Assembly (NCBI GenBank): GCA_015179045.1
Contig: WHUZ01000017.1
Span: forward strand, 682,001-746,000
Direction of reading: 5' to 3'
Length of the DNA: 64,000 bases
Source: Kalaharituber pfeilii
Lineage: Eukaryota; Ascomycota; Pezizomycetes; Pezizales; Pezizaceae
Below the pieces are notes generated by a model. That model made no database searches. It was not told the DNA's origin and was given only the letters and a program-made list of their open reading frames with translations. This document shows, piece after piece, positions 696-62,639 of this stretch. Numbering within the stretch: the first letter of the stretch is position 1; every line of letters begins with the position of its first letter. The translations under genes and the position numbers were made by a program.

Positions 696-755
696 TATGA
701 TAGAGGCGGAGGCGTTCGACAGGGACTTTTGCAGGACTGAGCAAGATATTGAAGG

Positions 756-809
756 TTTTTTTTTTTTATTTCACGTGACCCCGCTTGTAGCTGTTCGCCA
801 TGGCAGGGC
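756..809 (-). mobile_element. Micro-retroposon, family A tail unit
   Basis: A T run is followed by the family A 3' tail in reverse (CACGTGACCCCGC...GCCATGGCAGGG). It is flanked by a 12-bp direct repeat AGATATTGAAGG at 744-755 and 810-821, a target-site duplication. Only about 42 nt of unique sequence are present. It lies in the 5' flank of the secreted-protein gene. Confidence 0.85.
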
Positions 810-821
810 AGATATTGAAGG

Positions 822-1797
822 GTAAAGATCCGTATGATGTATTCCAGTGGGCTGTGGACGGTTTAAATGTTGACTCTAGATGCGGCGATCCAGGCTTAAT
901 TTATACTTTTTCACATTGATTGACTGAATACCGGTCTTCATGCGTGGGTCATCTGATGTTCATCGAAGCCAGTCAGTCCCATGCTCTATTCTGGTTAGCA
1001 TCGGTCAGTTCGCTATGGTGCCGTGTTCTCGTACCTGCTCTGAGGTCTCGGAGAAAAAACATAAGTTTTTCTGTAAGGTGACGTAAACTTTCAGGTTGTT
1101 GGATGCAATGCCGAGAATAAGAGCTTGGACGGTCGGTAAAGTTTTACATGATGACACTGTACTTGCACTCGACGTTCGAGCTTATTGCTGCCTTCTCTCT
1201 CTTCGCAGGCCTAACTCCGCGTACTTTCTCCGATTGCTCCAGAATGAGTAAGCTGTACATATCACCGAATTTCCACAAGGTATCGTTGGTAAGTAACCGA
1301 ATCGGGTAAGCGCAACCGGCTCAAAGGCATTCAGGTAAACCTTATATAGGTTATTCCTGTTCGGAATAACATACACTATATTGACATCGGTTTTTGCAAT
1401 TGATATACTTGTAACCTGAGTATATGCCAAGAAACCATGACTCGACTTACCGATCAGCGCCCGAAACTCACCGGGCACGCAGGGGGATTATTACACGGCT
1501 CCGGCCCGATTCACTCAGGCAAGGATATTCCCGAACGATCCACATCATTGGATAGAAGTATTTGCAATGCCCAATATGGCAATAATAGCAACGCAACACC
1601 CGCACAAATTTTGTGAGGTATTGCGCACCCCCACAAAAATGCGAAAATGCTATGAGAAAGAAGGAAAAATGAATATACTGCTTAAAACAAGACAGCTTGA
1701 TAGTTGGAGTACCAAACAAGTCTTAATGACAGTATGAACGCTTGTAGGCGTGATAAGGACTAATCAATTGCAACTCCTAACAGTGAATGAAAGCATA
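822..1797. other. No supported gene
   Basis: Open stretches on the minus strand at 1182-1478 and 1468-1719 have no recognisable domain and no splice-consistent continuation. I see no repeat structure here. Confidence 0.4.
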
Positions 1798-2081
1798 CCT
1801 GAAGTGCCGTTCTAATGGTCTCAAGTGAGCCTGGCGCGATCTCCAAATGGGGATAATGGGTGTGAAGGTTAGCCTTCACCTTGATTCCAGCATGTTCAAT
1901 AGAGTTGAGCTCCTGGGAGTAAGGTGCCCAGGCAGGAAGGAGTTGAATGCATTTCCTGAAGCATTATCCTTCATGAAAGAAATATTTTCATAACTAAGAG
2001 AAGTATTTTTCGTCAAAGTTTGCAAGACATCAAGGGAGTTCTTTTTCCAGCGTCCGGGTGTAAACGAAGCGATCTACTTTT

Positions 2082-2782
2082 TGTTACGGCTAAGGTAAGA
2101 CTTACCCGCGTAGGGGAACACTTACCCTGAACTGTTCGTAAGACCAATGCTGCTAGAGCGGCCTGATCACCCGTGAGGCTTGGCAGAAAGTTCTTTGTCG
2201 TTCGAATAGGGAAGTGCCAAGGAAGTGTGTGTCATTGTTTATGGTCTTTGACTTGTTAAGCACTCGGTGTATGCGCACATGCATCAGTAACTACTTTTGC
2301 ATGTTTCGTTGTTACGATTATTGGCATTGTTGAAGAATTGTTGTTCCTTTATTTGCTTGCCTAGTCATGTATGATGCGCTCAGTCTATTTAAGCACAGGC
2401 GATAGTACAGTTGAAGAATCAAGACACAAGCGGTGTTCTAAGTTCTCTATTACTCTGAAACCTATCGTTTCCTCATTACGCCCGTGAACCGCTCCGCTCC
2501 GCTGCGCGCTCCACGCAAAACAGCTGCCCTTCCGACCCGCCGTATATACGCCTCCGTAGCCACTTCGGCCCGCAGCATATACGCCTCTGTAGCCTGTTCG
2601 GCCCGCAGCATATACGCCTCCGTAGCCATTCCGGCCCGCAGTATACACACCTCCATAGCGACTCCGGCCCGCCGTATATACACCTCCGTAACGACTCCGG
2701 CCTGCCGAATACGCACCTCCTTAGCCGTAACATCCAGTGCCTTCCAGCGCCCACCGGAGCCTAGCCTCTCACGCCCGTAACA
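2082..2782. mobile_element. Solo LTR with internal minisatellite
   Basis: It starts TGTTACGG and ends CCGTAACA (short terminal inverted repeat, TG...CA) and is flanked on both sides by CTTTT (2077-2081 and 2783-2787), a 5-bp target duplication. Its first about 330 bp match the element at 63579-63935 almost base for base. The extra length comes from the 31-bp repeat array just before the 3' end. No internal retroelement sequence remains. It interrupts the Tc1 relic. Confidence 0.85.
2530..2729. repeat. 31-bp minisatellite inside the LTR
   Basis: About six to seven tandem units of the type CGTATATACGCCTCCGTAGCC plus ACTCCGGCCCGC, period 31 bp. Because 31 is not a multiple of three, several frames stay open on both strands, giving spurious repeat-rich ORFs (GYGGVYAAGR-like). 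The array is absent from the otherwise matching LTR at 63579. Confidence 0.85.
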
Positions 2783-3522: not shown

Positions 3523-3944
3523 TTTTTTTTTTTTTTTTTTTTTTTTTTCACATAACCCCGCTTGCAGCTGTTCGCCATGGCAGGGTCCCTGGACCGAGGT
3601 CCTTATGGCCCGGAGACAGGCACCTAAAAACAAACAACAACTCACTATATACACCGACATTCAAAAGGGAATAGAGGAAATAAAACCCATGAGACAACCC
3701 GCTATGCCGTCAAGTCCATTTCCTCCACCTCCCTCCCCTTCCCCTTTCTGTCCACCTTTGAATTTCTATCCCAGTCATACAGGCACGAATCGTACCACTT
3801 GCCTGACAACCTTACCTTCGCTGGTGTTTGGCTATCCGATTCCACCTCCCCCTCCAGGTAGATGACAACCGAGCTAGCCTTCTTTCCCTCCCTCCTCTCT
3901 TTCTTCACCAACCATCTTGCCGCAACAATCTTTCCCATCCATGG
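3523..3944 (-). mobile_element. 5'-truncated LINE family A copy
   Basis: A poly(T) run is followed by the family A tail, then about 360 bp of further LINE 3' sequence (GGCCCGGAGACAGGCACC shared with copies at 32.6, 54.1 and 56.4 kb). It is flanked by ATGCTCTTGTCAT at 3510-3522 and 3945-3957. Confidence 0.85.
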
Positions 3945-5290: not shown

Positions 5291-5466
5291 AGGTTAAGTT
5301 CTCATCGAAACTAACTCTAACCGTTTCAGTTTTTCACCCTTTTCTAATAGCTTTTCCCTTTCCGACATAACTCTATTATCAACCGTGACTTTTATTTTCT
5401 GGAATCAAAATCAAATTCTATATCTCCTACTTTCGGAAAAAAACAAAAGCCGAACGACGATTATTT

Positions 5467-5739: not shown

Positions 5740-5862
5740 TTGTTATTGGATTCTCCGAGAGGAAAAGGCTTCATAGTGAACATGGTTGACATTCATAGAG
5801 TGAGTATGATGTCACGGTTAGTTGTAGCAATAAAATCGTCCGTCAGTGAGGGGAGTCAATAA

Positions 5863-9502: not shown

Positions 9503-9560
9503 CCCTGCCATAGGTAGCCTGCATGCGGGGTTACTTGACCCAAAAAACAAAAAAACAAAA
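9503..9560 (+). mobile_element. Micro-retroposon, family A (subtype 2) tail unit
   Basis: CCTGCCATAGGTAGCC...GCGGGGTTACTTGACC and an A-rich end, flanked by GGTGCTTCGGGTT (9490-9502) and GGTACTTCGGGTT (9561-9573). It splits the copia frame between ENP and HHDHTKH. Confidence 0.85.
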
Positions 9561-9800: not shown

Positions 9801-9860
9801 TTTTTTTTTTTTTTTTTTTAATTCACGTGACTCCGCATGCAGCTGTTCGCCAAGGCAGGA
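9801..9860 (-). mobile_element. Micro-retroposon, family A tail unit
   Basis: Poly(T) then TTCACGTGACTCCGC...GCCAAGGCAGG, flanked by AACACATATCCT at 9789-9800 and 9861-9872. Inside the copia relic. Confidence 0.85.
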
Positions 9861-9966: not shown

Positions 9967-10041
9967 CCCTGCTATGGCGAACAGCTGCAAGCGGAGTTAT
10001 GTGATTAAAAAAAAAAAAAAAAATAAATAAAAAAAGAAAAA
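9967..10041 (+). mobile_element. Micro-retroposon, family A tail unit
   Basis: CCCTGCTATGGCGAACAGC...GCGGAGTTATGTGATT plus an A-rich tail with interspersed T and G, flanked by GGACAAGTCCATG (9954-9966) and GGACAAGCCCATG (10042-10054). Inside the copia relic. Confidence 0.85.
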
Positions 10042-16190: not shown

Positions 16191-16474
16191 AATATACAAA
16201 AGAAGTGGCAAAGCGCTTCAAGAGTGGGATAAAATGATAAAAGAAAGACTCCTGTCATTAGTTAGAAGTGCGCCAGATTGGCTTTGGTGTTACAGTAGTC
16301 AGATGAAATTATGCAATACTTTATTGACTTGTATGCAGTAAAAAAATATGTGTGTTGTCTTTTTGTGTGCAAATCCCATACAAAAGTTCTGAAAACTTTT
16401 CGACAAACCTTCTTCACTTTCGACCCCCTGTCCAGTGGCATACATTAATGCATGCATAGCGCTTCTGGGTATTC

Positions 16475-16540
16475 CCCCCCCCCCCCCCTTTTTTTTTCCC
16501 CCTCACGTGACCCGCGTGCAGCTGTTCGGCATGGCAGGGC
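16475..16540 (-). mobile_element. Micro-retroposon, family A tail unit with C-run
   Basis: The expected poly(T) is replaced by a run of C, then T, then C; next comes TCACGTGACCCGCG...GGCATGGCAGGG. Flanking repeats are GGGTATTCCCC and GGGTATTTTCCCC. On the sense strand the tail would be mixed A and G. Confidence 0.7.
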
Positions 16541-17790: not shown

Positions 17791-17850
17791 GTTTTTTTTT
17801 TTTTTTTTTTTTTCACGTGACCCCGCTTGTAGCTCCTCGCCATGGCAGGG
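17791..17850 (-). mobile_element. Micro-retroposon, family A tail unit
   Basis: Poly(T) then TTCACGTGACCCCGC...GCCATGGCAGGG between CAGGAGAATGAGAG at 17777-17790 and 17851-17864. Confidence 0.85.
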
Positions 17851-19570: not shown

Positions 19571-19861
19571 TAGTGAGCGGCACGAGCTAGCTCGAGCCTG
19601 GATTGATTATATACATAATATTGTCAAACCAAACTAAACTAAGCTAAATTTTCATCTTTCTCTCTACTATCAGGTAAATTGTGCATTTCGAAGTTGTTGG
19701 TAGGTCAGAATGAGCTCCAAGTCTCTAATTATTACTATATTAGGTATTTACAGTTTATGAAACCTTGCACTGGCTAAGCATTTTAGCGAGCTGTCAAGAA
19801 AAACACTAGCATGATCTTGGCTCGTTTGAGCTCGAGCTGGCTCGGATCGTGCCGCTCACTA
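19571..19861. mobile_element. Non-autonomous hAT MITE, copy 2, in the NLR ankyrin exon
   Basis: 291 bp with TAGTGAGCGGCAC / GTGCCGCTCACTA ends, flanked by an exact 8-bp duplication GTCCTTTG at 19563-19570 and 19862-19869, as for hAT transposition. No transposase. Same family as 11098-11442. Confidence 0.9.
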
Positions 19862-22800: not shown

Positions 22801-23650
22801 CTCCGATGATGTTTCTGTATACACACTGGCATAAAAATCGCATACTGCCATTTTTTCAGCGATAATGGCAGTAAATTGTTCAAGACTCTCCGTAGTTTCC
22901 ATATGGTTCAAAGTAATCTACCAGCGGTCAATTAGCTGCCGTAATAAATACTAATATTCCAACTGTAAAAAAGGATAATATTTAAATAAAACCAACCTGC
23001 AATATTCCTCTCACACCTGCCCAAACCAGGGCTGTAACCTCCGGACTATGCTGTATTGCCACATCCACAATCTGTGCATAGCTATTAAAGGTTCTCAGGA
23101 TGCCTTGCAACCGCTGTATAGTCACAGATTTATTGCTCTGCTGTATAGCAGTCTTTAAGTCGCCTATGGTCAACTGTACAATTTCGCTTGCTGCTTGATG
23201 TGCATGCTTGCTGGTTTCGAGAGGTGGCAATCCCATTTTTGGTAGCTTTTTCTCGGCTATCTTAAGCGACTTTTCCCACAGTGATTGGAGGTTACTCGGA
23301 GGAGCAGCTTTGGCACTGGGGTCATCTCCGGAGGTTGTTGAAGGTGCCGATGCAGCAGTAATTGTGGCTGGCACAGCGGCATCAGTGCTTGGGTCATTTC
23401 CGGGATTTACCAGGGGTGTCGATGCGACAGATACAGTAGGTGAAGACGCCCCTGGGAGGGGAGATGCCGGGTTTGTAGAACGCCATAGAAATCGCAAAGG
23501 AGATCTTGATCTCGCTGGCTCTTGGTTGTTCGAGGGTTCAGGGGACAAGGTCTCTCGCTGTCGTGTACCCGAGTTCTGTGTGCGAAAACGCTGGCGCCAG
23601 CCTGCTGCCCGATTCTTGAGAAATGGTTCCTTTTGCTTTTGTCCGCTCAT
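19859..23650 (-). CDS. NLR gene 1: DUF7708-like, NACHT, ankyrin repeats
   Basis: Spliced: exon 1 23650-22997, exon 2 22917-22217, exon 3 22148-19859 (introns 79 and 68 nt), 1214 residues. Residues about 1-130 are Ser/Pro-rich. About 140-400 match the alpha-helical N-terminal domain common in fungal NACHT proteins (HSPEVTALVWAGVRGILQ). Walker A is GAPGAGKTT at about 442-450, formed with an intron right after it; Walker B is VCIDALDEL at about 543-551. A winged-helix region with RPLKLDELSHALAV and FVHYSVEEYF follows. About ten ankyrin repeats close the protein, the last nine (about 906-1214) nearly identical. Fungal STAND proteins of this type act in non-self recognition and regulated cell death. 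The stop codon is the TAG of the inserted hAT terminus; two further repeats lie beyond it. Confidence 0.85.
19862..20780 (-). repeat. Nearly identical ankyrin-coding tandem repeats (102-105 bp)
   Basis: Nine units share GHEAIVRLLLE.KDVDADAKD. They differ mainly at a short window after AKD (KRYG, NND, NRG, KRWG, KIWG, NDD) and at one or two framework sites. DNA identity between units is very high, suggesting recent unit duplication or gene conversion. The complementary strand is also open through the array, which is a shadow. Confidence 0.85.
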
Positions 23651-25771: not shown

Positions 25772-25803
<32 letters not shown>

Positions 25804-26010
25804 ATAACCCCACTTGTAGCACGTGGCCATGGCAGGGTGAGACGTATGGCATGCCCAAGGTACGAGATGGGATGAGGTAGAGTGAGCTGAATTTCAGATG
25901 TATGGCATGCCTGAACCGAGACACGAGAAGATACGGAATGAGCTGAATTTAATAGATGTGGCAGAACGAGCTGAGCTAGAATCAGCTGAATTTGACAGGT
26001 ATGATAGGGC
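25120..26010. repeat. Degenerate 60-bp minisatellite
   Basis: About fourteen diverged units of the type GAATGAGCTGAATTTGACAGG plus TATGGCCGGCCC..., period 55-65 bp, drifting at the right end. Frames open on both strands here are repeat artefacts. It contains one micro-retroposon. Confidence 0.8.
25773..25837 (-). mobile_element. Micro-retroposon, family A tail unit
   Basis: Poly(T) then AAATCACATAACCCCACTT...GGCCATGGCAGGG between TGAGACGTATGGCAT at 25758-25772 and 25838-25852. It sits inside one minisatellite unit. Confidence 0.85.
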
Positions 26011-26582: not shown

Positions 26583-26835
26583 GTCTAGAATTTTGAACAG
26601 CAGCGGTCTACGACTTTTGTCAAGTATGTATCACACTTTGTATTCAAGTATATATACTAAGAAATATTTTAGAAATGATGGACCTTCCAGATAATACAAC
26701 AGACTGGACTCAATTCTTCGATGATGATACCTGATGCGCAACTGTCAATTACTGATAGTGGAAATATCCAGGACTATTAAAATCTAATTCACCTGGGTTA
26801 AATTCCAAAATCGCTTGAATTTACGTAAATGGCCT

Positions 26836-27564
26836 AGTCGGCCTGCCCAAGGCAAGAACCGCAGACCTAGCGCGGGTGATAGAGCTGATTGCAGAGAGGC
26901 GGCGGAGGCTAAGGAAGGCGGATGCAGTGAAGCTGGCATGGGTCAAGGCCCACGTGGGGATAGAAGGCAATGAGAAGGCGGATGAGTTGGGCAAAGAGGG
27001 GCCCAAGGGCATGAGGTATGATGGGCAGGCCACTGAGGGTGGGCTGCGTCAAGAGTTAGTTCGAAAAAGAAAAGAGGAGAGGGAGCGTGCAGGGTTTGGG
27101 AAGGGCAAATTCGCAAAGTGGGGCAGGAGAGCACTCACAAATACCACATGGCTGCGGACTGGAAAAGGCGGAGCTATGTGGAGGAGGATGGTCAGTGGCG
27201 AGGAGGTACAATGCACATGTGGTGAGGCATGGAGTGCTGAGCATGTGGTGTTCAGATGCACAGAACTGGAGCGGCCCCAGAGGAAGAACAAAAATGGGGC
27301 ACATGTCACCTGGCAGTCCTGGAAGGACCTAGAGGAGAAAGGATGGAAGCAAGAAGGCGTGGAAGGTCACCCGGTCGAGTACTGGTTTGCCTGCCTCGAT
27401 CTGGGGTAGCCGGGGACCGGGGACGGAGGGCACTGGGTGCTCAAGGGTGTATGTAGATTCCGTAGTTAGTTGTCTCAAACCTGGCCCGGGTATATGGGTC
27501 CCTGCCATAGGCTGGTAGCCTGTATGCGGGGTTACGTGAATAAAAAAAAAAAAAAAAAAAAAAA
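26836..27564 (+). mobile_element. 5'-truncated LINE family A (subtype 2) with RNase H end
   Basis: An open frame from about 26845 to 27409 encodes the RNase H C-terminal half: DLARVIELIAERRRRLRKA, then AWVKAHVGIEGNEKADELGK (the H...D of RNase H), a basic linker, then CTCGEAWSAEHVVFRC (zinc motif) and YWFACLDLG, stop. The 3' UTR ends CCCTGCCATAGGCTGG...GCGGGGTTACGTGAAT and poly(A). This anchors the micro-retroposons of subtype A2 to a LINE. The upstream RT is missing. Confidence 0.8.
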
Positions 27565-32618: not shown

Positions 32619-32656
<38 letters not shown>

Positions 32657-35600
32657 GTAACCCCGCTTGCAGCGCTAAGCCATGACAGGGTCCCTGGGCA
32701 AGTCCTCAAAGCCCGGAGACAGACTTAACAAAGAAAGTTCTAAATACACATCCCCGTTCTACCCCCCCTCTCCCCTTCTAGAAACCTGATTTTAGAAACT
32801 TCCAAGGGGTTCTTCTGGTTTCTACATTGGGGAGGCTTCCCTCAGTCTCGAACCAGACTACCGCTTAGTGGTTGACTAAGCTACTCCACACTACGCGGTT
32901 GCTTCGTGGGAGAACTTCTATCTCTCCACCTCTCCCCTCTCCTTCCTCTCTCCTCTCCTTCCTGTCTCCTCTCCTTCCTCCATACCTTCGCAGCCTGGAA
33001 CGAAAATTTCTCGTTGCATTACGTTATCCCCTCTCCTCAAGAAGTCCCGATCCGGGTCGGGGAATCGCGCGCTTCTAAAACCTTTATGTAATTTCTGTTC
33101 ATTACATGGTGCACATATAGCTAACATTTATCATTCTTAGACGGCACTCAATTACTTTCAGTATTTCTCAAAACTAACGGCATTGCTGGAACGAATTGGA
33201 AAGCTTGTTCCAATTTTCGACAAATTCGAGGTGCTATTCAATAGCAACCTCAAACTCAAGGATGCTGTAGCCGAATTCTGGGCAGTGGCTATATCTATCT
33301 TGACCAAGGCATTCGAGTTCTTACAAAAAGGAGGTAGGCTATTCAGACTTCCGAATATATCTTCAGACTATATGTTAATCCTATATCGTAGGCTACAAGC
33401 GTTTTCTCTACTCCGTGTTCAGCCCTTTTGATGCTGAATTCCAAGACCTTGAAGCCTCATTATGTTTCCAGCGCTCGGTTATTATGGACCTTGTGCACCT
33501 TGCATCAGAAGAAGCAAGCCATAAGATGCGCCAACAGATGTCGCTTTATGAATTTAAGAGTGAACAATGGATGCTGCAGCAGGACTTAGCAAGTAAAGGT
33601 TAGTAAATTGCACGTCATGCCCCCCCAAAATATATTTATGTTTTTGGATTTAACATAAGGACGTTACGTATAGAGCAAAGGCGCCGAGCATTAGTGGATG
33701 CAATCTCGGATTTTGATTATACGACAACTTTCTCGAATGCACGCGTGAGGAAGCATGAAGGTACTGGCAACTGGCTTTTCGAGTCGCTAGAATTTATACA
33801 ATGGGTCGAAAAATATCAAGATGCCCCTGCCATAATGTGGTGTCATGGAATTCGTACGTATGCCTGCTATAATATCAATTTGCCTTATGGTTGGTTGCTT
33901 ATTGTTCTGGAATATTAAGCTGGATCTGGTAAAACTATTCTCACAACAGCGGTAATTGACCACTTGTTTTCTGGACCATTATTGCAAAGTCGCCATGATA
34001 CCTTTATTGGCTATTTCTTTTGTGACTTTCATCACCGTCAATCATTGAAGGTTCAGACACTATTACAGAGTGTAGTAAAGCAAATACTTCGCACATTTGT
34101 TCACAAAATCTCACCGGAGATGGAACAGGAATTGTCGAAATTCTGCAAAGGACAGTTAGGGTACCGAGGCTCCCCAAGCAATGATAAGTGGTTTGACCTA
34201 TTGCAGCTAGCGGCCTCTCTTCCGTCACACCTATATATTTGCATAGACGGCATTGATGAATGTGAGCAGGAGGATCAATGCCAGATCATTGAATACCTCA
34301 AAAAACTAGTTATATCGAGACCTGGTAGCAGTTCAGGTTTACTGAGTGGAGAGGAGCATGCACAGGACTACCACAGGAAACTCTTTCTTTCCTGTAGGCC
34401 TGAGATCCCGATATCGAGACTCCTCGCCCTGGAAAATTCAATTTCATTACTAGCCGAGATTTCATTATCTATACCAGGCTTGATTCGTCCAGAGATTGAA
34501 AATTATATCGTGAAAACAATAGACGAACGGATTCGGCAGGGAAGACTTGTGCTCCGTGACGATTCAATGAGGCAAGAAATAACAACCTCCTTGCTAAGAG
34601 GTGCAGAAGGAATGTAGGTAACTTAAATTCACTAACGATTGGTTGCATTGTTCTAACTTATATATGACCTGTCACTCTATAGGTTCCTTTGGATTTTCTT
34701 TCAAATTGACGACATCTGCTTAAGGAATAACGACAACGCCATTCGTGAAGCGTTGAAATCATTACCAAAGGGTCTAGATGAAACTTATGCTCGAATCCTT
34801 GATAGGATATCCACTCGTGTTCCAGAGGTCGCCGCCAAGGTATTCCAGTGGGTTGCTGGTGCTAAGCGCCCATTGACAGTGCACGAGATCGCCGAGGCAA
34901 CCGCAATCGAGTTAACGGACACCACGTGGGATGATGTGCGAAAGAAATATCCCACTGACAGCTTCAAAGTTCTGGAAAATTGTGCCAATATGATAATCGT
35001 GAATGACGACGACACAATTCAGTTTGCTCATTCCTCTGTCTGCAAGTTCTTACAGTCGTCAAAGCTGCAATCAGGGCCCTATCAAACGTTTTCTCTGGAC
35101 ATGGAAGGTGTCAATACTTATCTAGCGCAGATCTCCATTATCTACCTAACATTCCCTGAATTCGGTCATGCTGCATCTCATAAGTCTGCAAGTCAAAACG
35201 ATCAGAGGACAGTTGCGTGCAAACCACTGCCCGATTGTCCTATTCAATGGGTACCTGCGATGTTCAACCAAGGGACCTCTAGTACGATGGGCCGAATCTC
35301 TCAGCTCGTGGCAAGACAACGTCAAAAGTCTTCAACATCGAAGGTTCAACTTACGCGGCAGGTACACGTAGCGTCCAAGAAAACATTTACCACAACGTAT
35401 GTATTGCTTTCATACTTCGCCTCACATTGGCTTGCCCACTGTGAGGAGGTTGTCACATTGCTTGCAGCCGATGCAAACTGGGAACGCAGCCTTACCGACC
35501 TCTGTTTTGGTCTCCAGCTTCCAGAAGATCATCTACCTTGGCAGCTTCCAAAGGATACCCCAGTGTCGTCATCTCAAGACATAGACCCTTATCAGCGCCC

Positions 35601-39057: not shown

Positions 39058-39094
<37 letters not shown>

Positions 39095-39135
39095 AATATC
39101 ATTACTCGCGTGCCGCCCTGTGGGCTATAGCGAGA
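39058..39135 (-). mobile_element. Micro-retroposon, family B tail unit
   Basis: Long poly(T), then ATATCATTACTCGCGTGCC...GGGCTATAGCGAGAT, flanked by AGGTAGTACATTC (39045-39057) and AGGTAGTTCATTC (39136-39148). Confidence 0.85.
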
Positions 39136-39284
39136 TAGGTAGTTCATTCATTAATCTAGGTCACTCACTTTGTGTGGAAGAAATGCCTGACCGGCCCGGT
39201 TGGATGACTGGCCTCGAACACGTAGACCCAGAGGAACCAGTGGTCTTCCGTTGTGGACATACAGAGAGTATACAGTGATATATC

Positions 39285-40929: not shown

Positions 40930-41365
40930 CCTCAGCTATAGCGTGGCTTGATGGGGGGAAAGGCTTGAAGCCATAGGGACACAAAGTCGGCAAGGGCCGC
41001 AAGGCGGGCAGCCCCGAATGCAGGTGGTGTGGGATTGAAGAGGGGCCAATGGCACACATCTGGAACAGATGCGAGACGTGGAGGAGAAGGTGGGCAGGGA
41101 GGTTGGAGGCGACAAGGATGCCGCTGGCAGGCGAAGGGGACCCACTGGCTGACCTGTTGAGGTGGATGGACCCAGGGCGGCACGGGATTAATGATTATAT
41201 ATATAAAAAAAAAAGAGGTGGATGGAGAGATGACGGGCGTAGGGGCTTTGAGATATTATCCGTTTGATCTAAATAGTCTTTGTTTTCCTTAATTACTTAT
41301 CCTGTTATTGTACCTATTCTTGTCATAGCCGTAAGGTGGCATAAGAGTGATGATATTAAAAAAAG
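40930..41365 (+). mobile_element. 5'-truncated LINE family B copy
   Basis: Plus-strand frame near 41049-41160 reads AHIWNRCETWRRRWAG...DPLADLLRWMD, the end of the LINE zinc region. It continues to a weakened family B tail (CATAGCCGTAAGGTGGCATAAG...AATGATATT-like) and A run at 41365. A second tail unit is nested in it. Confidence 0.65.
41171..41214 (+). mobile_element. 44-bp micro-retroposon, family B tail unit
   Basis: CCCAGGGCGGCACGGGATTAATG and A/T tail between GAGGTGGATGGA at 41159-41170 and 41215-41226. Shorter than most units: about half of the stem-loop. Confidence 0.8.
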
Positions 41366-41849: not shown

Positions 41850-41872
41850 TGCTCCCTGCCATAGGCGGGTAG

Positions 41873-41911
<39 letters not shown>

Positions 41912-42000
41912 CATCACGTAGCGCCGCTTGCTGCTGTTCGCCATGGCAGGGCAGGCGGGTAGTCTGTATGCGGGTTACGTGACTATAAAAGAAAAAAAAG
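41850..42000 (+). mobile_element. Micro-retroposon, family A subtype 2, itself interrupted
   Basis: CTCCCTGCCATAGGCGGGTAGTCT... continues after an inserted unit as GTATGCGGGTTACGTGACT and A-rich tail. Flanked by AATTGGAGA at 41841-41849 and 42001-42009. Without the nested unit it is about 61 bp. Confidence 0.85.
41876..41952 (-). mobile_element. Micro-retroposon, family A, nested in another
   Basis: About 35 T, then CATCACGTAGCGCCGC...GCCATGGCAGGG, between AGGCGGGTAGTCT at 41863-41875 and 41953-41965. Opposite orientation to its host unit. Confidence 0.9.
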
Positions 42001-42342: not shown

Positions 42343-42399
42343 CTGGCCGTAGCCCATAGGGCGGTATGCGAGTAATGATATTAAAAAAAAAAAAAAAAA
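42343..42399 (+). mobile_element. Micro-retroposon, family B tail unit
   Basis: CTGGCCGTAGCCCATAGGGCGG...GAGTAATGATATT plus poly(A), flanked by AAAAGAGGA at 42334-42342 and 42400-42408. Confidence 0.8.
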
Positions 42400-43294: not shown

Positions 43295-44298
43295 TGTCAG
43301 ATCAGATGGGGTAAGTGCGAAGTCCTATGCAGCAAGGAGGCCATACCTCGGCGCGGATGGATGTGTTTTTGTACTGGAAAGACGTCTTATTAGCCAGTCC
43401 ACATGCTGGGCGATCTTAAGGTTCAGTAGCTGTACCCTTATCCACAAAGCTTAGAGACTCAATCAGACTCTGCGCTACTTGGTGCGGAGACAAACGCTTT
43501 GGAGGACGGTGTCGTTACTTAGTCATATAAAGTTTCATCGTTCCGAAACACCCAGCCAGCCAGTATGCTTGTTAAGACGGAAGCTATTGTATGCCTACAT
43601 TAACTCAAGTGCTCATTGTATTGCAGGGCAGGAGGCGCAAGTGAAATTTGGGCACTGTCTAGAAGGGAACGCCTGTGAGGAGCAGTACGCGGGGCATGTA
43701 CGGTAGGGAAAGGGCAGATAGCACTATAGTGCGCTCGCGCGTTGATTTTGCATGGTTGAGAATTGTCTCCCCCTCGGCCAGCCTTTGTAGCTGCTGTAGC
43801 AGTGTAGCCTCGATGATATCTCAGATTTGGCCTCCACAAACCCAACAATAAGAAGTCTGGTGAGTGCACTCTTCCTTGGCGGAGTGGGTGAGCGTGAGGG
43901 GCATCCACCATCGACCGCTTGGTAGAACGCTTGGCGAGGCGGCTCTTCGAGGGGTATGTATTGCAACTAGACTAGCGAGGCGGGCCGGGAAGTGACTTCC
44001 GTATTGGGCGATCGTGTGGAATCCTGATCAGACCTCATCTGCATATGCATTGTCTGGAGGATGCAAACGCCAAGTCTAATGCAGGCTGCAAGATCTCGGC
44101 AGGGACGGATGGCCTTTTATGCTGGGAAGACTCAATCGGACTCTGTGCTGCTTGCCGTTACGAAACTTAGCCTTATCTTCACCCCCTATATCGGCATGCG
44201 AGTAATGAAAAAAAAAAAAAAATCACCCCCTATGTACCTTTGGGGGAAGGAGCAGTTGCTTAGTCATGTACAAGTTTCATCGTTCCAGAACACCCAGC
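42640..44298. repeat. Diverged segmental duplication (about 0.7-0.9 kb, two copies)
   Basis: 42640-43560 and 43614-44298 share ordered blocks: CTCCCCCTCGGCCA, GAGTGGGTGAGCGTGAG, CCACCATCGACCGCTT, CTTCCGTATTGGG, ATGCATTGTC and AGTTTCATCGTTCC...AACACCCAGCC. The second copy is cut at its end by the MULE. Confidence 0.7.
44190..44222 (+). mobile_element. 33-bp micro-retroposon, family B
   Basis: Only ATCGGCATGCGAGTAATG plus about 15 A, flanked by TCACCCCCTAT at 44179-44189 and 44223-44233. The shortest sequence-bearing insertion in the window. Confidence 0.85.
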
Positions 44299-44675: not shown

Positions 44676-44789
44676 TTGATCTAAGCTTATCCTGAAGGCA
44701 TTCTTATGACTGGCCTAATATAGTAAATATTGCAACTGTAGTGGCTATAAATGGACATGTTGTTGTCGGCAATCAAGTAGATATCATTA

Positions 44790-44847
44790 CCTCGCCGTAG
44801 CCTATCAGGCGGCACGCGAGTAATGAAATAAAAAAAAAAAAAAAAAA
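44790..44847 (+). mobile_element. Micro-retroposon, family B, in the MULE leader
   Basis: ACCTCGCCGTAGCCTATCAGG...GCGAGTAATGAAAT plus poly(A), flanked by AAGTAGATATCATT at 44776-44789 and 44848-44861. It lies about 100 bp upstream of the transposase. Confidence 0.85.
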
Positions 44848-44951
44848 AAGTAGATATCATTCAGCACTTTCACTGATAAACACGCTCCGAATTCATTACC
44901 TGCTATCTGCTTCCTATACCAAGTCCTTTTCTACTATTTTATATATATCCA

Positions 44952-47261
44952 GTGTATAATATGTCTCTAAGTCCTAATATGGCTACACAGCAGGGTTGGG
45001 TGCCGCATCCTGATCTTCCACCAAGCCTTCGCCCAGCAGTTCAAAGTTACGTTGATGCTATCCCAGCTTATGAGAGACTTCCGCCACTTGCAGATGAGCG
45101 ATTTGCAGACCCAGATAGTGCTTATGACCGAATTCAAAATGCAGCTTTCTGTGCTGGGTTTGCAATTGCAAAGCAATGTGGGTCATTGAAACAGGGACGA
45201 GTGAGATTTTGGTGTGTACACTCAGGAATGGCACGCAATACCCATAAGATTACCGAAGATAGTAGAAAAAGGGAAACAAATAGCTTGAAAAAGGATTGTC
45301 CATATCGGATCTATGTCTCATTGAGGTCCATTCGAAATCCAAATCAGGCTGATGCCAGTGGATCCGAGTCAGAAACAGCATGGCAGATTGGTATAACTCA
45401 TAATGGTCATAACCATCCTATGACATCAAATCCACTTGTATATCAGATTCACGAAAAGCGCCATCCAGACTATATTCACCTTCAGGCTCAAGCGCGCGCT
45501 TTACGAACTGCACATGTTTCCTACAACACTTCACTTCGTGTAATGAGCCAGAATCAAGAAACATTGCGCTTACGTCCAAGTACATTTTACAATACCGTGA
45601 GATCGAATCCTTCTATGAATACACCAGGCCAAGTTCTTGAAAATATTCGCAAAGGTCTTACAGCAGCTGGATTCATATACCGATCACGATATTCCTATAT
45701 CTATCGCCATGGAAATCCAATTCCAGAGTCTAAACAGCTTGAGCAACTCTTCTTTTGTACGCCAGATCAAATCTACTTGGCACAGCGATTTGTTTCCGAT
45801 TTCTGTATGCAAATTGATGCAACATTCTCTACAAATATTCTCCAAATGCCACTCTCTTCATGTATTGGGATAACGAATACTGGCTTGACATTTCCATTTG
45901 CACTAAGCTTTATACGTTCAGAAAGCCAAGAGGCATTTGATTTTATTTTTACTTGTTTGGGAGAGTTGATTTGGTCAGATACATCAGAGTTTCTATTTCC
46001 AAACATTGTTCTTGCAGATCAAGCACAAGGTTTGATTGCATGCCTTGCTAATAGCAGTAATGCTATGACCTCGGTAGTTCAACATCAATTGTGCGAGTGG
46101 CATGCAGCTGAAAACATCAAAGCACGACTTACCAACTCTGGCCATTATGACAAACTTAAGCGGAATGAGCTTGCAGGGTATGTTTGGCGATACATCAAAT
46201 CCTCAACACCTGAGCAGTTAGAGGATAATCGGAATGCACTTAAAGCACAGCTTCATGATACTGAAGTTATGTATTTAGAGAATAATTGGTTTTGTAAAGA
46301 GAACCAATTTATTCGTCTATATACTTATAGGCTGTCAAATTTAGGATGTTATTCAACACAGCGGACCAAAAGCTATCACCGGCCTCTCAAAGCAGCATTA
46401 AGTCCACAATCATCACTGCAAGATGCAGTTGCAGCCCTAACAGATCATATTCAGACTCTTACTTTTCGGGTTGCTGAATCAGAGGCTGATAGTCGTACTA
46501 AAATTCCTATTAGCCTCCCCAATTCCTTACATAGCCTTTGTGGTGTTATCACACATTATGCTCTCAATTTTATTCGAACTGAGTGGCTAAAGGCATGTAC
46601 CGCTACATTAGAAGAGGAGGACTGTCAATGTACAATACGAAATCAATTTCAGCTTCCATGTTATCATGAGCTTAAGCCTTTTGTCTCTACTTCCAATATT
46701 CCACTATCCTTAATTCATTCTCGTTGGTACCTCAATTCTTCTCAACTTTCACCAGCTGGGTCTAGTGCTACTCCCGGACCTAGTCTTCCAACACATGCCA
46801 GAACCCTGCAACCAACCTTGATTGAGACAACAGTAAAGCTAGAGGAGTTTCACGCTCAGCTACCAGTTGAGCAGGCTCAACGATTTGCTTCCTTTCAAGC
46901 TCGTCAGGCTACACAACTTATCCGTCAATTTCAAAGTCGACACGAAATTGAAGAACGAATTCCTGAAGTTCTTCCTCCTACACCTACTCCAAGGGCACAA
47001 ACTTTAAAGCGGCGACGGCAACAAACTGCCAATGAACTCGCAGAAAACCGTCAGAGGCAACGAGTCGCTAGGGCTGTACATCTCGATTCTGGGGCGGCAG
47101 CCAGGGCTGGGGTGGCAGCTGGGGCTGGGGCGGCAACAGGGGCTGGGGCGGCATTACGTGGATCTGGATCTAGACGTGGAAAAAGACAGGGACATGCGCG
47201 TGGCAGGGCACCATCACCAGGACTTAATGAAACACACGATCTTATTGTTGTAGCTAGATAG
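44952..47261 (+). CDS. MULE transposase (FAR1-like)
   Basis: 769 codons without a stop or intron; ATG codons at 44961 and 44979 are alternative starts (the annotated frame opens at 44952). In order: a FAR1/WRKY-GCM1-type DNA-binding domain (about residues 55-160; CAGFAIAKQCGS...FWCVHSG, later HNGHNHP), then the MULE transposase core with first Asp in FCMQIDATFSTN (about 287), second Asp in NIVLADQAQGL (about 355) and CEWHAAENIK following. A SWIM-type zinc motif CQCTIRNQFQLPCYHE lies at about 558-573. The C-terminus is basic and Gly/Ala-rich. Intact motifs and TIRs suggest a recently active autonomous element. Confidence 0.9.
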   Translation: MYNMSLSPNMATQQGWVPHPDLPPSLRPAVQSYVDAIPAYERLPPLADERFADPDSAYDRIQNAAFCAGFAIAKQCGSLKQGRVRFWCVHSGMARNTHKITEDSRKRETNSLKKDCPYRIYVSLRSIRNPNQADASGSESETAWQIGITHNGHNHPMTSNPLVYQIHEKRHPDYIHLQAQARALRTAHVSYNTSLRVMSQNQETLRLRPSTFYNTVRSNPSMNTPGQVLENIRKGLTAAGFIYRSRYSYIYRHGNPIPESKQLEQLFFCTPDQIYLAQRFVSDFCMQIDATFSTNILQMPLSSCIGITNTGLTFPFALSFIRSESQEAFDFIFTCLGELIWSDTSEFLFPNIVLADQAQGLIACLANSSNAMTSVVQHQLCEWHAAENIKARLTNSGHYDKLKRNELAGYVWRYIKSSTPEQLEDNRNALKAQLHDTEVMYLENNWFCKENQFIRLYTYRLSNLGCYSTQRTKSYHRPLKAALSPQSSLQDAVAALTDHIQTLTFRVAESEADSRTKIPISLPNSLHSLCGVITHYALNFIRTEWLKACTATLEEEDCQCTIRNQFQLPCYHELKPFVSTSNIPLSLIHSRWYLNSSQLSPAGSSATPGPSLPTHARTLQPTLIETTVKLEEFHAQLPVEQAQRFASFQARQATQLIRQFQSRHEIEERIPEVLPPTPTPRAQTLKRRRQQTANELAENRQRQRVARAVHLDSGAAARAGVAAGAGAATGAGAALRGSGSRRGKRQGHARGRAPSPGLNETHDLIVVAR

Positions 47262-47555: not shown

Positions 47556-48303
47556 ACAACATATGGGGGGATGACTTTGCCAGCTGCATTTACTGTCTCT
47601 AAATTGGTAACAAACTCTCTGTTACCATCAGTAGCTGCAATTTTGCGACCTCTTCCTGTACGAACAATATATTTGCGTCTGCCAGTAGCAATACTCATGA
47701 CAATGCCCTTTTCGTCATAGTTCCACAGATTGCCAGGGGTGATCTTCAGCTGCTGAATTGTAGTACGGAGTGATCGATAGAATGCTATTTGTGCTGGAAT
47801 GTTTGTACCCTGTACCTGTCGAATTTATCGCCATAGCCCACAGGGCGGCAAGCGATTAATGATATATATATAAAAAAAAAAAAAAAACCTGTCGAATTCT
47901 CTTTATGTATTGTACATATTTTGCTTTCACTGCAGGGTGGCGTGTAAAGTATCTTTCATGCCATCGGTGGGGAGGAATTTGGTTGCTATATCTTCGTTGC
48001 AAAAGCAAAACCACCATCGATCTCAACATTTGAAGATGAACAGGGAAACCCATATCACTCATTTCAAGTGCCCAACACTCTAGTGCATTTTCTTCACTTC
48101 TGGTAAGCAATTGCTGCTTTTCTTGTGCCTCTTTCCTTGACTTGTGTGTCCCTTTAATCCGCCTACTTAATGTACAGGGATCAACATCAAAGTATTCAGC
48201 TATTTTCGATAAAGACTCGTTTCGATGCTTATAAAAATAAGCGATTGCTCTATTGATAGCTTCATGAGACTAGATAGCTTCAGGCTGGTTCCGGCATATC
48301 ATG
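47556..48303 (-). pseudogene. Pogo/Fot1-type transposase, truncated
   Basis: Reading minus from 48303: MICRNQPEAI, then a TAG, then SHEAINRAIAYFYKHRNESL (HTH_psq), the Tc5/CENP-B-like HTH (HRWHERYFTRHP) and, after a micro-retroposon, the DDE start with WNYDEKGI (first Asp) and VRTGRGRKIAATDGNREFV. The frame ends at PPYVVQN exactly where the MULE TIR begins; the rest of the DDE domain is not on the other side of the MULE. Confidence 0.8.
47826..47886 (+). mobile_element. Micro-retroposon, family B, in the pogo relic
   Basis: TATCGCCATAGCCCACAGGGC...GCGATTAATGATATAT plus poly(A), flanked by ACCTGTCGAATT at 47814-47825 and 47887-47898. It splits the pogo frame. Confidence 0.85.
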
Positions 48304-55630: not shown

Positions 55631-55680
55631 CCCTGCCATGGCGAACGGCTGCACGCGGGTCGCGTGAAAAAAAAAAAAAA
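55631..55680 (+). mobile_element. Micro-retroposon, family A tail unit
   Basis: CCCTGCCATGGCGAACGGC...GCGGGTCGCGTG plus poly(A), flanked by an 18-bp duplication AATTGGATAGTACTAGTG at 55613-55630 and 55681-55698, the longest in the window. Confidence 0.9.
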
Positions 55681-56361: not shown

Positions 56362-56397
<36 letters not shown>

Positions 56398-56669
56398 ATA
56401 ACCCCGCTTGCAGCGCCAAGCCATGGCAGGGTCCCTGGGCAAGCCCCCGAAGCCCGGAGACAGGCTTAACAAACAAAGAAATTTCTATCTACTTCTAAAA
56501 CCTGATTCCATAAACCTCCGGACGGTTCTTCCGGTTACTGCCTCAGGGAGGCTCCACTATATATCTCCCCCTCTCCCCCCTCCCCTCTTCTCCACTCCTT
56601 CGCATCCCGGCAAGCAAACTTCCCTGACGGCAAATTTTTACCCGACCCGGGTCGGTAAATCGCACAGTG
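56362..56669 (-). mobile_element. 5'-truncated LINE family A copy (308 bp)
   Basis: Poly(T), family A tail, GGGCAAGCCCCCGAAGCCCGG and related sequence, flanked by TTGATTCTAACTT at 56349-56361 and 56670-56682. It ends just downstream of the gene at 56696. Confidence 0.9.
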
Positions 56670-56695
56670 TTGATTCTAACTTACCATCCGCAACC

Positions 56696-58111: not shown

Positions 58112-58123
58112 ACAAGGCAGGGA

Positions 58124-58293
58124 TTTTTTTTTTTTTTTTTATATATCAATACTCGCAGGCCGCCCGACGGGCTATGGCGAGGTCTTTATTAGAAGAGAGA
58201 AAGAAAGAAAAAAGTCAACAACCCTAACTACTCTCAACCAACTACCTAACTACCTACATGTATTGCCCGCGAACTCCTCCATGATGCGGGTGG
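58124..58293 (-). mobile_element. Short LINE family B copy (170 bp), nested
   Basis: Poly(T), then ATATCAATACTCGCAGGCCGC...GGGCTATGGCGAGG and about 110 bp more. Flanked by ACAAGGCAGGGA at 58112-58123 and 58294-58305, opposite in orientation to the surrounding copy. Confidence 0.8.
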
Positions 58294-58782: not shown

Positions 58783-58842
58783 TCGCCGTAGCCCATAGGG
58801 TGGCAAGCGATTAATGATATATAAAGAGAAAAAAAAAAAAAA
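58783..58842 (+). mobile_element. Micro-retroposon, family B, inside a family B RNase H
   Basis: TCGCCGTAGCCCATAGGGTGG...GCGATTAATGATAT plus poly(A), between AAGCCGGCAAAGATA at 58768-58782 and 58843-58857. It breaks the frame right after the RNase H GNERAD motif. Confidence 0.9.
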
Positions 58843-59502: not shown

Positions 59503-59631
59503 TTATGTACGTTTCACGGAGCGGCAGCAATAGGGCGGAGTCTTTTAACTTTTTCATTTTTCTTTTCTTTTCTCTCTACTTCCATATGTAACTAATCTCG
59601 CCATAGCCCGAAGGGCGGCATGCGAGTAATG

Positions 59632-59663
<32 letters not shown>

Positions 59664-59784
59664 TGCTGCAGTCGCCATGGACAGTGTCAAGAGGGGGCTA
59701 AGCCCTGCCATAGGGAACAGCTGCAAGCGGAGTGATGTGAATATCCCCCCCCCCCCCCCCAAAAAAAAAAAAAAAAAAAAAAAG
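59503..59784 (+). mobile_element. Two stacked LINE tails (B then A)
   Basis: 59585-59662 is a family B tail with poly(A); 59708-59784 is a family A tail (CCCTGCCATAGGGAACAGC...GCGGAGTGATGTGAATAT) with a C run followed by A run. Around the second, GGGCTAAGC and GAGCTAAGC are similar, a possible target duplication. The tail C-run parallels the one at 16475. Confidence 0.65.
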
Positions 59785-59840
59785 GCCGGAGCTAAGCGAT
59801 TCGCCCATGAAATCGCATGCGCCCTGTCCATCAAACAGTA

Positions 59841-61682
59841 CTGTCGCTTACCTATTAGTGACCGATCTCTTGGCACTCCTCCTCGTACAACTTCCACATG
59901 CAATATCTTCAATATCAGGCATGCCAGCAACATGAGGTAAATTGCAAAATATACAGCAGGCATGCCTGAATATTTGGAGGATATTTGATGGCCACACTAT
60001 ATATACACCTTTTGTAATACAATGATATGCAGAGAAAGTATAGCATTCTACCCCCCTCTTGCATAGCAAAGGATAGCATACACCAAATCTATATAACTAT
60101 TCTCAACTATAGCTCTTCACACTCTCAAGTGACTATAGAAGAAGATAGCTAACTTAAATGGTCATAGAATAAGGCTGCTCTGGATTTCTGTAGCCTTAAA
60201 TCAGTCACTGAAATGGTCAAAAGTGCCGGAAGTGCCAAAACTGCCAATATATTCTCTTATTACTTGCAACAAGCAACTGCATATACTAGAAATGACAGGA
60301 TTAATAGCTATAAGACTACTCTTATGATTACGATAGTATGTAACATAATTGGGAGTGTTGGCTACTAGAAAAAGATCCTCAAGCATAGTATAGTATATTT
60401 CAGGACTGATAGTATTAATTGCTAGGAAAAATACTCTCCTGAGTGCAACAGCCTCTAGTAAGATAATAGAATTAGTAGACCTGATAGGTATCTATACCAA
60501 CAATAGTATATAGCTGCAGAATTAGCTGGTAAAGAAGTACTCTCATGGCTATAATGGCATATACCTAACTGATAGGATTAGTAGATAAGATAAACTTCTT
60601 ACTATGTTAATATCAATAGCATATACTATAGTTGATAGAGGAGGTAAGAATAATAGTATTGCTGCTATGTACATCTATATAGAATGATATAGAGAGCAAT
60701 ACTAATAAAAATTTAGTATTTCTTATAGCAATATAGTAAGTGGAATTGTATCTGGATATACACTATCCTATAATAACCTCATAGGTATAATTAGCTGGGA
60801 GAACTTCTGTCAGGGCGGTTAGTCTCTTGTTATGGGTTCACCGCAACCGTACGGCAGGCAGTCAGTGGATACACATATGCAAGTGATATACGAGCCGACA
60901 GTGTTGGTGACAGTGCTGGCGTTGGGGTCGCAGTCACATAAATGAGTGCTATATGAGCTATGCAGAGGACTAGCATATGTAGAGCACTCAGACAATATCT
61001 ATAAAGAGTAACGATACTCTGATTTTGAGGTAGCAGCAATTGATATAAATCTGTGCTTGCTGATAGAATATAGCAATTAAAGAATTAGTTCATCATATAC
61101 CTACTACTTTGGTGTATATTTATTATATAAAACACTATTGATTATATCGAGAGCATAGAAGTGCTGCTTTTAGAGTAGTATATTGATTGCAGTAGGGTAT
61201 ATTATGTGTGCAGCAGGACATAGTGGCAGCTTTAGTACTTCCAGCACTTTCGGATATTTTGGTAACTGCTTCTGAGGCTACAGAAATCCACAGCGACTTA
61301 TCCTACCATCATTTAGGTAAGCTACCCTTCTTCTATAGTCACTTGAGACTACGAAGAGCTATAGTTGAGAATAGTAATATAGTAGTTAGTGTATGCTATC
61401 CTTTGCTATGCAAGGGTTTTTTTTTTTTTTTTTTTTTTTTTATGCAAGGGGGGGTAGAAAGCTATACTTTCTCTGCATATCATTGAATTACAAAAGGTGT
61501 ATATATAGTGTGGCCATCAAATATCCTCCAAATATTCAGGCATGCCTGCTGTATATTTTGCAATTTACCTCATGTTGCTAGCATGCCTGACGCTGAAGAT
61601 ATTGCATGTGGAAGTTGTACGAGGAGGAGTGCCAAGAGATCGGTCACTAATAGATGCTCGGTCACTAATAGGTAAGTGACAG
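59841..61682. mobile_element. Tc1/mariner-type TIR element (1842 bp, non-autonomous)
   Basis: CTGTCGCTTACCTATTAGTG at 59841 and the complement of CTGTCACTTACCTATTAGTG at 61682, flanked by TA on both sides (59839-59840, 61683-61684). The inverted arms are about 330 bp. The centre is very AT-rich, with no transposase frame. The right arm contains a partial terminal duplication (GCTCGGTCACTAATAGG). Confidence 0.8.
61417..61440 (-). mobile_element. Poly(T)-only insertion with target duplication
   Basis: 24 T between TATGCAAGGG at 61407-61416 and 61441-61450. The opposite TIR arm (complement of about 60040-60070) reads CTATGCAAGAGGGGGG with no insertion and a single copy, an internal empty site. 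Confidence 0.85.
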
Positions 61683-61684
61683 TA

Positions 61685-61950
61685 AATGGTTGTGGTTCCA
61701 TCACCCAACATCCAATCAGCTAACAGCTTTACATGTCGTAACCAGGGACAAGCCTGTGTGCAAGCCCAGAACCGTACTATGGGTAACAGTTCTGACGTAG
61801 GGGAGAATGTTCCGTACTTTACAGATATAAATGCAGCGTCCTAGTATGTGCGTTACGCCTTGATCGTGATTTCCGAAGTACTGTAAATTGTTCAAGGGAC
61901 AGTGGGCGTTAACATGTTTGAACATTAATATTTTTCCCGTGAGTAACGGC
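61685..61950. other. No supported gene
   Basis: Short spacer between two TIR elements; nothing recognised. Confidence 0.4.
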
Positions 61951-62403
61951 TACTCGTTGCTAGCGTAAAGTGATGCAACTTCTGAAGCTATGGTACGACA
62001 GTCACAGATGACTATGCGTGAAAAAAATTGGAGAAAGAGACAGCTAGAAGAATCATGTAGTATTGAGCTAGGAAATATCTAAAGATACTCGTTACCAGCA
62101 TAAAGTAATGCAATTTCCGAAGCTGTGCGCAAGGTCTGTGCAAATGCCTGTGCTGGGGTATGGCAGGTGTGGGTGAGTGCTCATAAAAGGTGGGGTGAGT
62201 TGCTGGCAATGTTATTGTATTCGGATTTCAGAATACTTTGTGTTTGATGTAATAACCAGCAGAGTAGGAGAGTATATTCTACGTAATATGCTAATATCTG
62301 AGTGGATGCCTTTAGTTGGGAATCATCAGTCTCATGTGCTAGAGACATTCTCAAGTGCCTACATTACCCTGCCATGGCGAACAGCTGCAAGCGGGGTCAC
62401 GTG

Positions 62404-62434
<31 letters not shown>

Positions 62435-62639
62435 GCCTACATTGTAATGCAAGCCATTGAGTTCACCATCTGGTAGAGCAACTTCAATAACCTTGATACC
62501 TTTAGATATTTCCTAGCTCAATACTACGTGATTCTTCTTGCTGACTTCTTTCTCCAATTGTTTTCACGCATTTTTCACCTGTGCACAGACCTTGTACACA
62601 GCTTCGGAAGTTGCATCACTTTATGCTGGTAACGAGTAC
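61951..62639. mobile_element. TA-flanked foldback element(s), Tc1/mariner-like
   Basis: CTCGTTGCTAGCGTAAAG at 61953 and CTTTATGCTGGTAACGAG at 62620-62637, each bordered by TA. The left arm (61953-62080) pairs with 62505-62637. A second internal terminus TACTCGTTACCAGCATAAAG at 62085 pairs with the same right arm, so two nested copies or a duplicated left end are present. Confidence 0.7.
62366..62430 (+). mobile_element. Micro-retroposon, family A tail unit (reference copy)
   Basis: ACCCTGCCATGGCGAACAGC, then TGCAAGCGGGGTCACGTG and 28 A, between AAGTGCCTACATT at 62353-62365 and 62431-62443. The CCCTGC and GCGGGG segments can pair as a stem. Confidence 0.9.

What the first reader, a model, noticed from the sequence alone, without database searches (positions are those of the whole stretch)
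744..62443. About 18 micro-retroposons: LINE 3' hairpin plus poly(A), with fixed 5' ends and long target duplications
Seen: insertions at 756, 9503, 9801, 9967, 16475, 17791, 25773, 39058, 41171, 41850, 41876, 42343, 44190, 44790, 47826, 55631, 58783 and 62366 are only 33-85 bp yet carry 9-18 bp target duplications and poly(A)/poly(T). Family A units nearly all begin at CCCTGCCAT; family B units mostly at (T)CGCCATAGCCC. Longer LINE copies in the window have extra sequence directly upstream of these points. Known: LINE target-primed reverse transcription gives variable 5' truncations. Inference: a constant start means either a discrete short RNA is being retroposed or reverse transcription halts at one structural position.
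Basis: partly seen in the sequence, partly recalled or inferred. Interest (0 to 1): 0.95.

Follow-up and report, generated by a model that had tools for sequence, protein, structure and literature searches.

The report
Hairpin-only LINE tails with fixed ends
In what is very probably a desert-truffle genome, a large number of tiny pasted-in copies consist only of the last RNA hairpin of a jumping gene plus a poly(A) tail, and many begin at the foot of that hairpin, which suggests that something trims or bounds the RNA there before it is copied into DNA.

Summary
Of the 18 listed insertions, 16 begin at the foot of the LINE tail hairpin (some read by eye); 41171 and 44190 are cut inside it. In 143 distinct copies, the target duplications of family A pile up at one nucleotide, -1 relative to CCCTGCC: 27 of 41 confident duplications fall at -2..0. 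Family B peaks at -3..0 (10 of 23). Flank-shuffled controls put none at -4..+1. Equal-length genome-wide counts show a cliff: 3542 A units, but only 318+370 carry either sampled LINE upstream sequence; further up the decline is slow. Family C: 810 against 374. The fixed start is the outermost base pair of the tail hairpin: position -1 pairs in 44 of 44 distinct full-length A copies, and in B this pair covaries C-G/A-U. Position -2 mostly does not pair. I conclude that LINE machinery copied templates ending at the hairpin foot. RNA trimmed 5'->3' down to a stable, probably RT-bound hairpin is the most likely source; RT termination, RNA cleavage and cDNA trimming are rivals. The RNA itself was not observed. 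Host: very probably Kalaharituber pfeilii. New variant of a known kind (5'-truncated LINE copies).

The parts
756..809 (-). family A hairpin-only unit; TSD AGATATTGAAGG at 744-755 and 810-821
9503..9560 (+). family C hairpin-only unit; 13-bp TSD with 1 mismatch
9801..9860 (-). family A hairpin-only unit; TSD AACACATATCCT
9967..10041 (+). family A hairpin-only unit; 13-bp TSD with 1 mismatch
16474..16540 (-). family A hairpin-only unit with a G-run in its tail; only 7-bp TSD GGGTATT (start by eye; the scans put it elsewhere with weak matches)
17791..17850 (-). family A hairpin-only unit; TSD CAGGAGAATGAGAG
25773..25837 (-). family A3 hairpin-only unit; TSD TGAGACGTATGGCAT
39058..39136 (-). family B hairpin-only unit; 13-bp TSD with 1 mismatch (missed by the scans)
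41171..41214 (+). family B copy truncated inside the hairpin (not at the fixed start); TSD GAGGTGGATGGA
41853..42000 (+). family C hairpin-only unit split by the nested family A unit at 41876-41952; ends approximate, by eye
41876..41952 (-). family A hairpin-only unit nested in the family C unit; TSD AGGCGGGTAGTCT
42343..42399 (+). family B hairpin-only unit; TSD AAAAGAGGA (weak, A-rich)
44190..44222 (+). family B copy truncated inside the hairpin; TSD TCACCCCCTAT
44789..44847 (+). family B (ACCTCGCC) hairpin-only unit; TSD AAGTAGATATCATT
47826..47886 (+). family B (TATCGCC) hairpin-only unit; TSD ACCTGTCGAATT
55631..55680 (+). family A hairpin-only unit; 18-bp TSD AATTGGATAGTACTAGTG
58783..58842 (+). 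family B hairpin-only unit; TSD AAGCCGGCAAAGATA
62366..62430 (+). family A hairpin-only unit; TSD AAGTGCCTACATT
3548..3944 (-). longer family A2 copy (5' end at about -359), tail unit at 3548-3585
26819..27539 (+). family C LINE 3' region: ORF 26819-27409 with an RNase H match, and tail unit 27500-27539
32653..32690 (-). tail unit of a longer family A3 copy
56394..56669 (-). longer family A3 copy (5' end at about -238)
58143..58293 (-). longer family B copy (5' end at about -113)

Best explanation
These are retroposed copies of LINE 3' tails made by target-primed reverse transcription, from RNA templates whose 5' end already lay at the foot of the tail hairpin. Shown: target duplications, poly(A), the fixed start in several tail subfamilies, and its coincidence with the outermost base pair of a conserved stem. 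Inferred: long polyadenylated LINE RNA is degraded 5'->3'; the process stops at the stable tail hairpin, probably because the LINE protein is bound to it; and the surviving hairpin-poly(A) RNA, still held by the reverse transcriptase, is copied to its very end.
For: 27 of 41 confident A duplications end at -2..0 and 10 of 23 in B at -3..0; flank-shuffled controls gave none at -4..+1 in 3 x 141 trials. 30-mer counts at up to 3 mismatches: 3542 inside the A unit, 318 and 370 across the two sampled LINE junctions, then 255 (A1), 373 and 238 (A2) further up. C: 810 units, 374 with the junction. Position -1, the first base of the insert, pairs with 30 in 44 of 44 distinct full-length ungapped A copies (12 of 67 copies dropped) and in 23 of 25 confident solos; -2 pairs in 18 of 44 A and 3 of 41 B. 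The outermost B pair is CG 24, AU 12, other 4, and 0 of 500 shuffles reached the covariation score. In A the end pair is G-U in 33 of 44, which is a pair in RNA but a mismatch in the cDNA strand. In A1, two copies (L012, L059) start at -38/-39, at the foot of the next stem, with clean duplications, and a third (L026) with a weak one. Joins show little microhomology: 3 with one extra base, 16 at -1, 8 at 0, one each at +2 and +7. In B a TGTANNTAA-like motif before the tail is found in 26 of 60 copies (13 strict, 13 looser) and in 0 of 10 confident solos. For R2 templates, 5' truncation before cDNA synthesis, with a stable fold as barrier to 5'-3' exonucleases, is proposed in PMC11331408 (passages).
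Against: No RNA was observed. The B peak is weaker and 3 nt wide. Some copies start inside the hairpin. In A1 RNA the stem could extend to a G-C pair at -2, yet most solos start at -1. Five A copies have their duplication end at -4 to -7 in the scan (one confident, L009; one of them, the window unit at 16474-16540, is read differently by eye), with extra bases that do not match the LINE. Two A1 places (L062; L004/L006) run past the second hairpin. Binding by this LINE's protein is inferred from other LINEs.
Confidence: 0.5

Rival explanations
1. Reverse transcription of long LINE RNA terminates at the hairpin foot, because the RT or a bound protein sets a template boundary, as a helix does in telomerase RNA (recalled).
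For: A1 and A2 have a further potential hairpin about 5 nt upstream of the start (GGGTCTAGACCC; GGACTTCGGTCC), seen in the sequence and, for A2, in folds with 60 nt of upstream sequence. Several subfamilies share the stop.
Against: Stalling directly at that hairpin predicts starts near -5 that carry LINE bases; the five A copies whose duplication ends at -4 to -7 carry bases that do not match the LINE, against 27 confident solos at -2..0. In 3 of 7 B copies folded, 60 nt of upstream sequence adds at most 3 kcal/mol (the other 4, and longer stretches, add more), yet B also peaks. A polymerase is expected to stall on entering a helix, not after leaving it.
Confidence: 0.25
2. An endonuclease cuts the LINE RNA just 5' of the hairpin (RNase P- or RNase III-like), giving a discrete tail RNA.
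For: Single-nucleotide sharpness in A; the A stem including -1 has 7 pairs. Recurrently truncated U3 in human L1 chimeras was read by its authors as a sign of a specific cleavage (PMC13174262, passages).
Against: I see no shared sequence between A and B at the cut; B ends are spread over 3 nt.
Confidence: 0.12
3. The cDNA is made longer and its single-stranded 3' end is trimmed back to a hairpin in the DNA before joining.
For: Structure-bounded trimming of cDNA would give nearly the same geometry (inference; no call).
Against: The end pair in A is G-U in RNA terms in 33 of 44, a mismatch in cDNA; G-U and A-U types both start at -1 (few A-U cases).
Confidence: 0.08
4. A separate small-RNA gene (a SINE of about 38 or 77 nt) feeds the LINE machinery.
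For: A1 copies often stop at the first or second hairpin.
Against: Several subfamilies, each matching its own LINE tail, would each need a gene. No Rfam family in the window.
Confidence: 0.03

Closest known systems
5'-truncated copies of stringent-type LINEs (UnaL2, ZfL2)
   Same: 3' stem-loop that the LINE protein recognises in zebrafish LINEs (PMC4176376, abstract and introduction read); target-primed insertion
   Different: 5' ends here peak at the foot of the stem, and the copy holds nothing but the tail
R2 SIDEs (Short Internally Deleted Elements)
   Same: Short non-autonomous elements moved by LINE machinery (PMC3414825, abstract read)
   Different: SIDEs join a 5' ribozyme to the 3' end; these units show no 5' module
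SINEs sharing a LINE tail, such as Mg-SINE with MGL in Magnaporthe
   Same: Capture through a LINE-like 3' end, target duplications (PMC2104539, passages read)
   Different: No SINE body in the 38-40 bp unit
Truncated snRNA and U3 retrocopies moved by human L1
   Same: Truncations cluster at particular segments of the RNA structure or recur at one place (PMC4476161 and PMC13174262, passages read)
   Different: Those are cellular RNAs, truncated 3' or joined in chimeras, and the snRNA cuts lie in single-stranded parts; here it is the LINE's own tail, cut at a stem foot

Membership tests
Target-primed LINE insertion | target site duplications | tested here: met
   41 of 66 A, 23 of 59 B and 2 of 16 C copies have a confident one within 600 bases, the rest were not resolved or have longer bodies
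Target-primed LINE insertion | 3' end at poly(A) | tested here: met
Target-primed LINE insertion | source element codes for a reverse transcriptase | tested here: inconclusive
   RNase H above the cut-off beside one B tail (L032) and the window's C tail; below the cut-off, with a sub-threshold zf-RVT match, beside another B tail (L011); no RT domain was looked for further up
Ordinary 5'-truncated LINE | scattered 5' ends | tested here: not met
   not met as a whole for A and C; longer copies, and much of B, do scatter
Stringent-type LINE | conserved 3' stem-loop | tested here: met
Stringent-type LINE | LINE protein binds that stem-loop | not testable with these tools
   needs a binding assay
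SINE | body derived from a small RNA gene with a Pol III promoter | not tested
   no promoter or tRNA scan was run; no Rfam hit in the window; no room for a body is visible in a 38-40 bp unit

The most novel reading that the evidence does not exclude
LINE RNAs of this fungus give rise to a discrete hairpin-poly(A) tail RNA (about 38-40 nt before the tail), by exonuclease trimming against an RT-protected hairpin, and in family A this fragment outnumbers longer templates in retroposition: a record, written in the genome, that 5' truncation can be set by RNA decay before reverse transcription.
Probability: 0.42. Interest if true: 0.8.

Novelty: new variant of a known kind. Interest (0 to 1): 0.62.

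Why it matters
Why LINE copies are 5'-truncated (RT drop-off, host repair, or degraded template) is an old question. Here a large set of natural insertions shares a truncation point at a structural boundary, which makes the template-decay model directly testable. It would also mean that a tail hairpin plus poly(A) is enough for efficient retroposition.

Tried and rejected
Cap-derived extra G at the start: disfavoured, because the -1 base mostly follows the LINE subfamily (G in A1, A in A3 and most A2, T in C), with exceptions (two A1-like solos have A), and in A1 a cap G cannot be told from template. Branch-point stop: B has YTAAY-like motifs shortly before the start, but A and C show none by eye. 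Microhomology-directed joining: no clear excess (not formally tested). A1 as an element that never exceeds two hairpins: my first impression from 4 A1 copies, dropped after one search showed that L062 and L004/L006 share sequence further up. Rfam: no match in the window. Literature: the searches listed no paper whose title or abstract start reports hairpin-only LINE copies with fixed starts; only open-licence papers are held, and most hits were seen as listings only. PMC7550596 and PMC10455484 were seen as passages.
Full report
What was checked. The 18 coordinates were read directly and scanned for direct repeats. Sixteen have the reported anatomy with the start at the foot of the hairpin; 41171 and 44190 begin inside it. 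For 16475, 39058, 41850 and 42343 the start was read partly by eye, because homopolymer tails or nesting confuse the scans; searches placed some of these elsewhere with weak matches.

Where the window lies. It is G000:C79:682001-746000 of a 78,031,657-base assembly in 360 contigs. Both relatives listed for a host protein of the window (47% and 50% identity) are Kalaharituber pfeilii proteins, and one lies on a contig of 1,541,133 bases, exactly the length of contig C2 of this assembly. The genome is therefore very probably that of this desert truffle (Pezizales). All three LINE RNase H relatives listed are Kalaharituber proteins too.

Copies. Profile searches with three tail models found 143 distinct copies (A 67, B 60, C 16) in the window, 30 three-kilobase loci, 20 ten-kilobase stretches of C1 and 40 short stretches. 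Copies were made distinct by genome position; segmental duplicates such as L003/L005 and L004/L006 were left in. The 30 loci were brought in by an exact match to the start of the A unit, so they cannot show A copies cut inside the unit. The 40 short stretches were seeded on the extreme 3' end plus poly(A) and are unbiased for the 5' end, but they are the first listed places, all on C1 and C2, 20 of 100 listed for each seed. Ten earlier places (7 A-seed, 3 B-seed) were skipped because they lay in loci already held.

5' ends. With a confident duplication (score at least 8.5; 66 A, 59 B and 16 C copies were usable), A gave 41: 27 at -2..0, two at -38/-39, seven at -69 to -581, one at -7, one each at +2 and +7, and two (duplicates of each other, L004/L006) at +30. 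B gave 23: 10 at -3..0, three inside the hairpin, ten at -8 to -545; one of these ten (L073, -26) has a clean 13-bp duplication at -2. C gave 2 (0 and +30). This scan looked 600 bases up; one search looked 1500 bases up and found further long A copies. Exchanging the 3' flanks among copies put none at -4..+1 in three sets of 141 at thresholds 7 to 10, although elsewhere it gave 11 matches per set at threshold 8 and 4.3 at 9, against 70 and 63 in the real data, so some long starts are chance. In the 3'-seeded A/C sample, by my reading, 11 of 20 are hairpin-only, 1 starts at the second hairpin, 1 inside, 6 run further up and 1 is unresolved. In the B sample 3-4 of 20 are hairpin-only, 2 are cut inside, and 14 run further or are unresolved.

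Genome-wide. Thirty-base patterns at up to 3 mismatches, reversed controls all 0: inside the A unit 3542; across the A1 junction 318; across the A2 junction 370; A1 -39..-10 255; A2 about -43..-14 373; A2 some 260-340 bases up 238. So up to 81% of A units lack both sampled upstream sequences. This is an upper bound for hairpin-only copies, since other upstream subfamilies and mutated junctions also count as lacking. Family C: 810 units, 374 with the junction. For B only unit counts were made: 3666 exact tails and 3160 exact units. The tool warns that counts of repeats are lower bounds.

Structure. Of 67 A copies 55 are full-length and ungapped, 44 of them distinct: -1 pairs with 30 in 44 (GT 33, AT 10, GC 1), while -2 pairs with 31 in 18. 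The inner helix as I first drew it (pairs 9-20, 11-18, 12-17) is not supported. Of 60 B copies 42 are full-length and ungapped, 41 distinct: -1 pairs with 28 in 37 and -2 with 29 in 3. On an alignment of 40 distinct B tails the stem has 96.1% paired cells and 21 cells changed on both sides; the end pair is CG 24, AU 12, other 4; a loop-closing pair is CG 31, UA 8, other 1. No shuffle of 500 reached the covariation score, and slid partners fell to 16-47% paired. The number of further pair types was lower than in the shuffles (4 against 5.2), and relatedness of the copies weakens the shuffle test. Of 25 confident ungapped A solos 23 have a pairing -1 base.

Reading. The start follows the foot of the stem across subfamilies whose sequence at the boundary differs. 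A second boundary, at the foot of the next stem, appears in A1: L012 and L059 have clean duplications; L026 has a weak one with two mismatches (one search had placed it at -1074). L062 and L004/L006 run further up, with shared sequence, so A1 has longer copies too. Five A copies end their duplication at -4 to -7 with extra bases unlike the LINE. In B the motif upstream of the tail, which resembles a poly(A) signal (recalled), is missing from all 10 confident solos, so these units probably came from longer RNA that was already polyadenylated. Together this favours a template that ended at the stem over a separate gene. Whether decay, cleavage or polymerase termination made that end is not shown.

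Against the reading. The B peak is broad and minor; copies cut inside the hairpin exist; the RT domain and its clade were not determined; the A2 copies L025/L026 carry upstream an ORF without Pfam match (L025 tested), so they may be non-autonomous. No expression data were available.

Noticed in passing
2081-2427 and 63578-63921: Two copies of a repeat of about 350 bp, 94-98% identical, near both ends of the window; looks like solo LTRs (by eye).
   Followed up: no
16474-16540 and 59703-59790: Tail hairpin copies whose poly(A) is joined to long G or C runs.
   Followed up: no
41853-42000: A family A unit sits inside a family C unit, so A moved after C at this place.
   Followed up: partly
8235, 10602, 59598 and further B copies: A TGTANNTAA-like motif after a T-rich stretch lies a few nt before the B hairpin in longer copies (13 of 60 strict, 13 more in a looser form), perhaps the poly(A) signal of the LINE.
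   Followed up: partly
19859-22917 (-) and 34657-37455 (+): NACHT-like proteins (NPHP3_N in the first, GPIID_WHD in both; below the cut-off in the first) with long ankyrin arrays of 102-bp repeats, 61-92% alike to their reference copies.
   Followed up: no
44880-47261 (+): ORF of 793 aa with a MULE transposase domain.
   Followed up: no
L025:407-1201 and L026: Two A2 copies 99.3% identical over 1.3 kb, with TSDs and, in L025, an ORF without Pfam match next to the tail; possibly an ORF1-only LINE derivative.
   Followed up: partly
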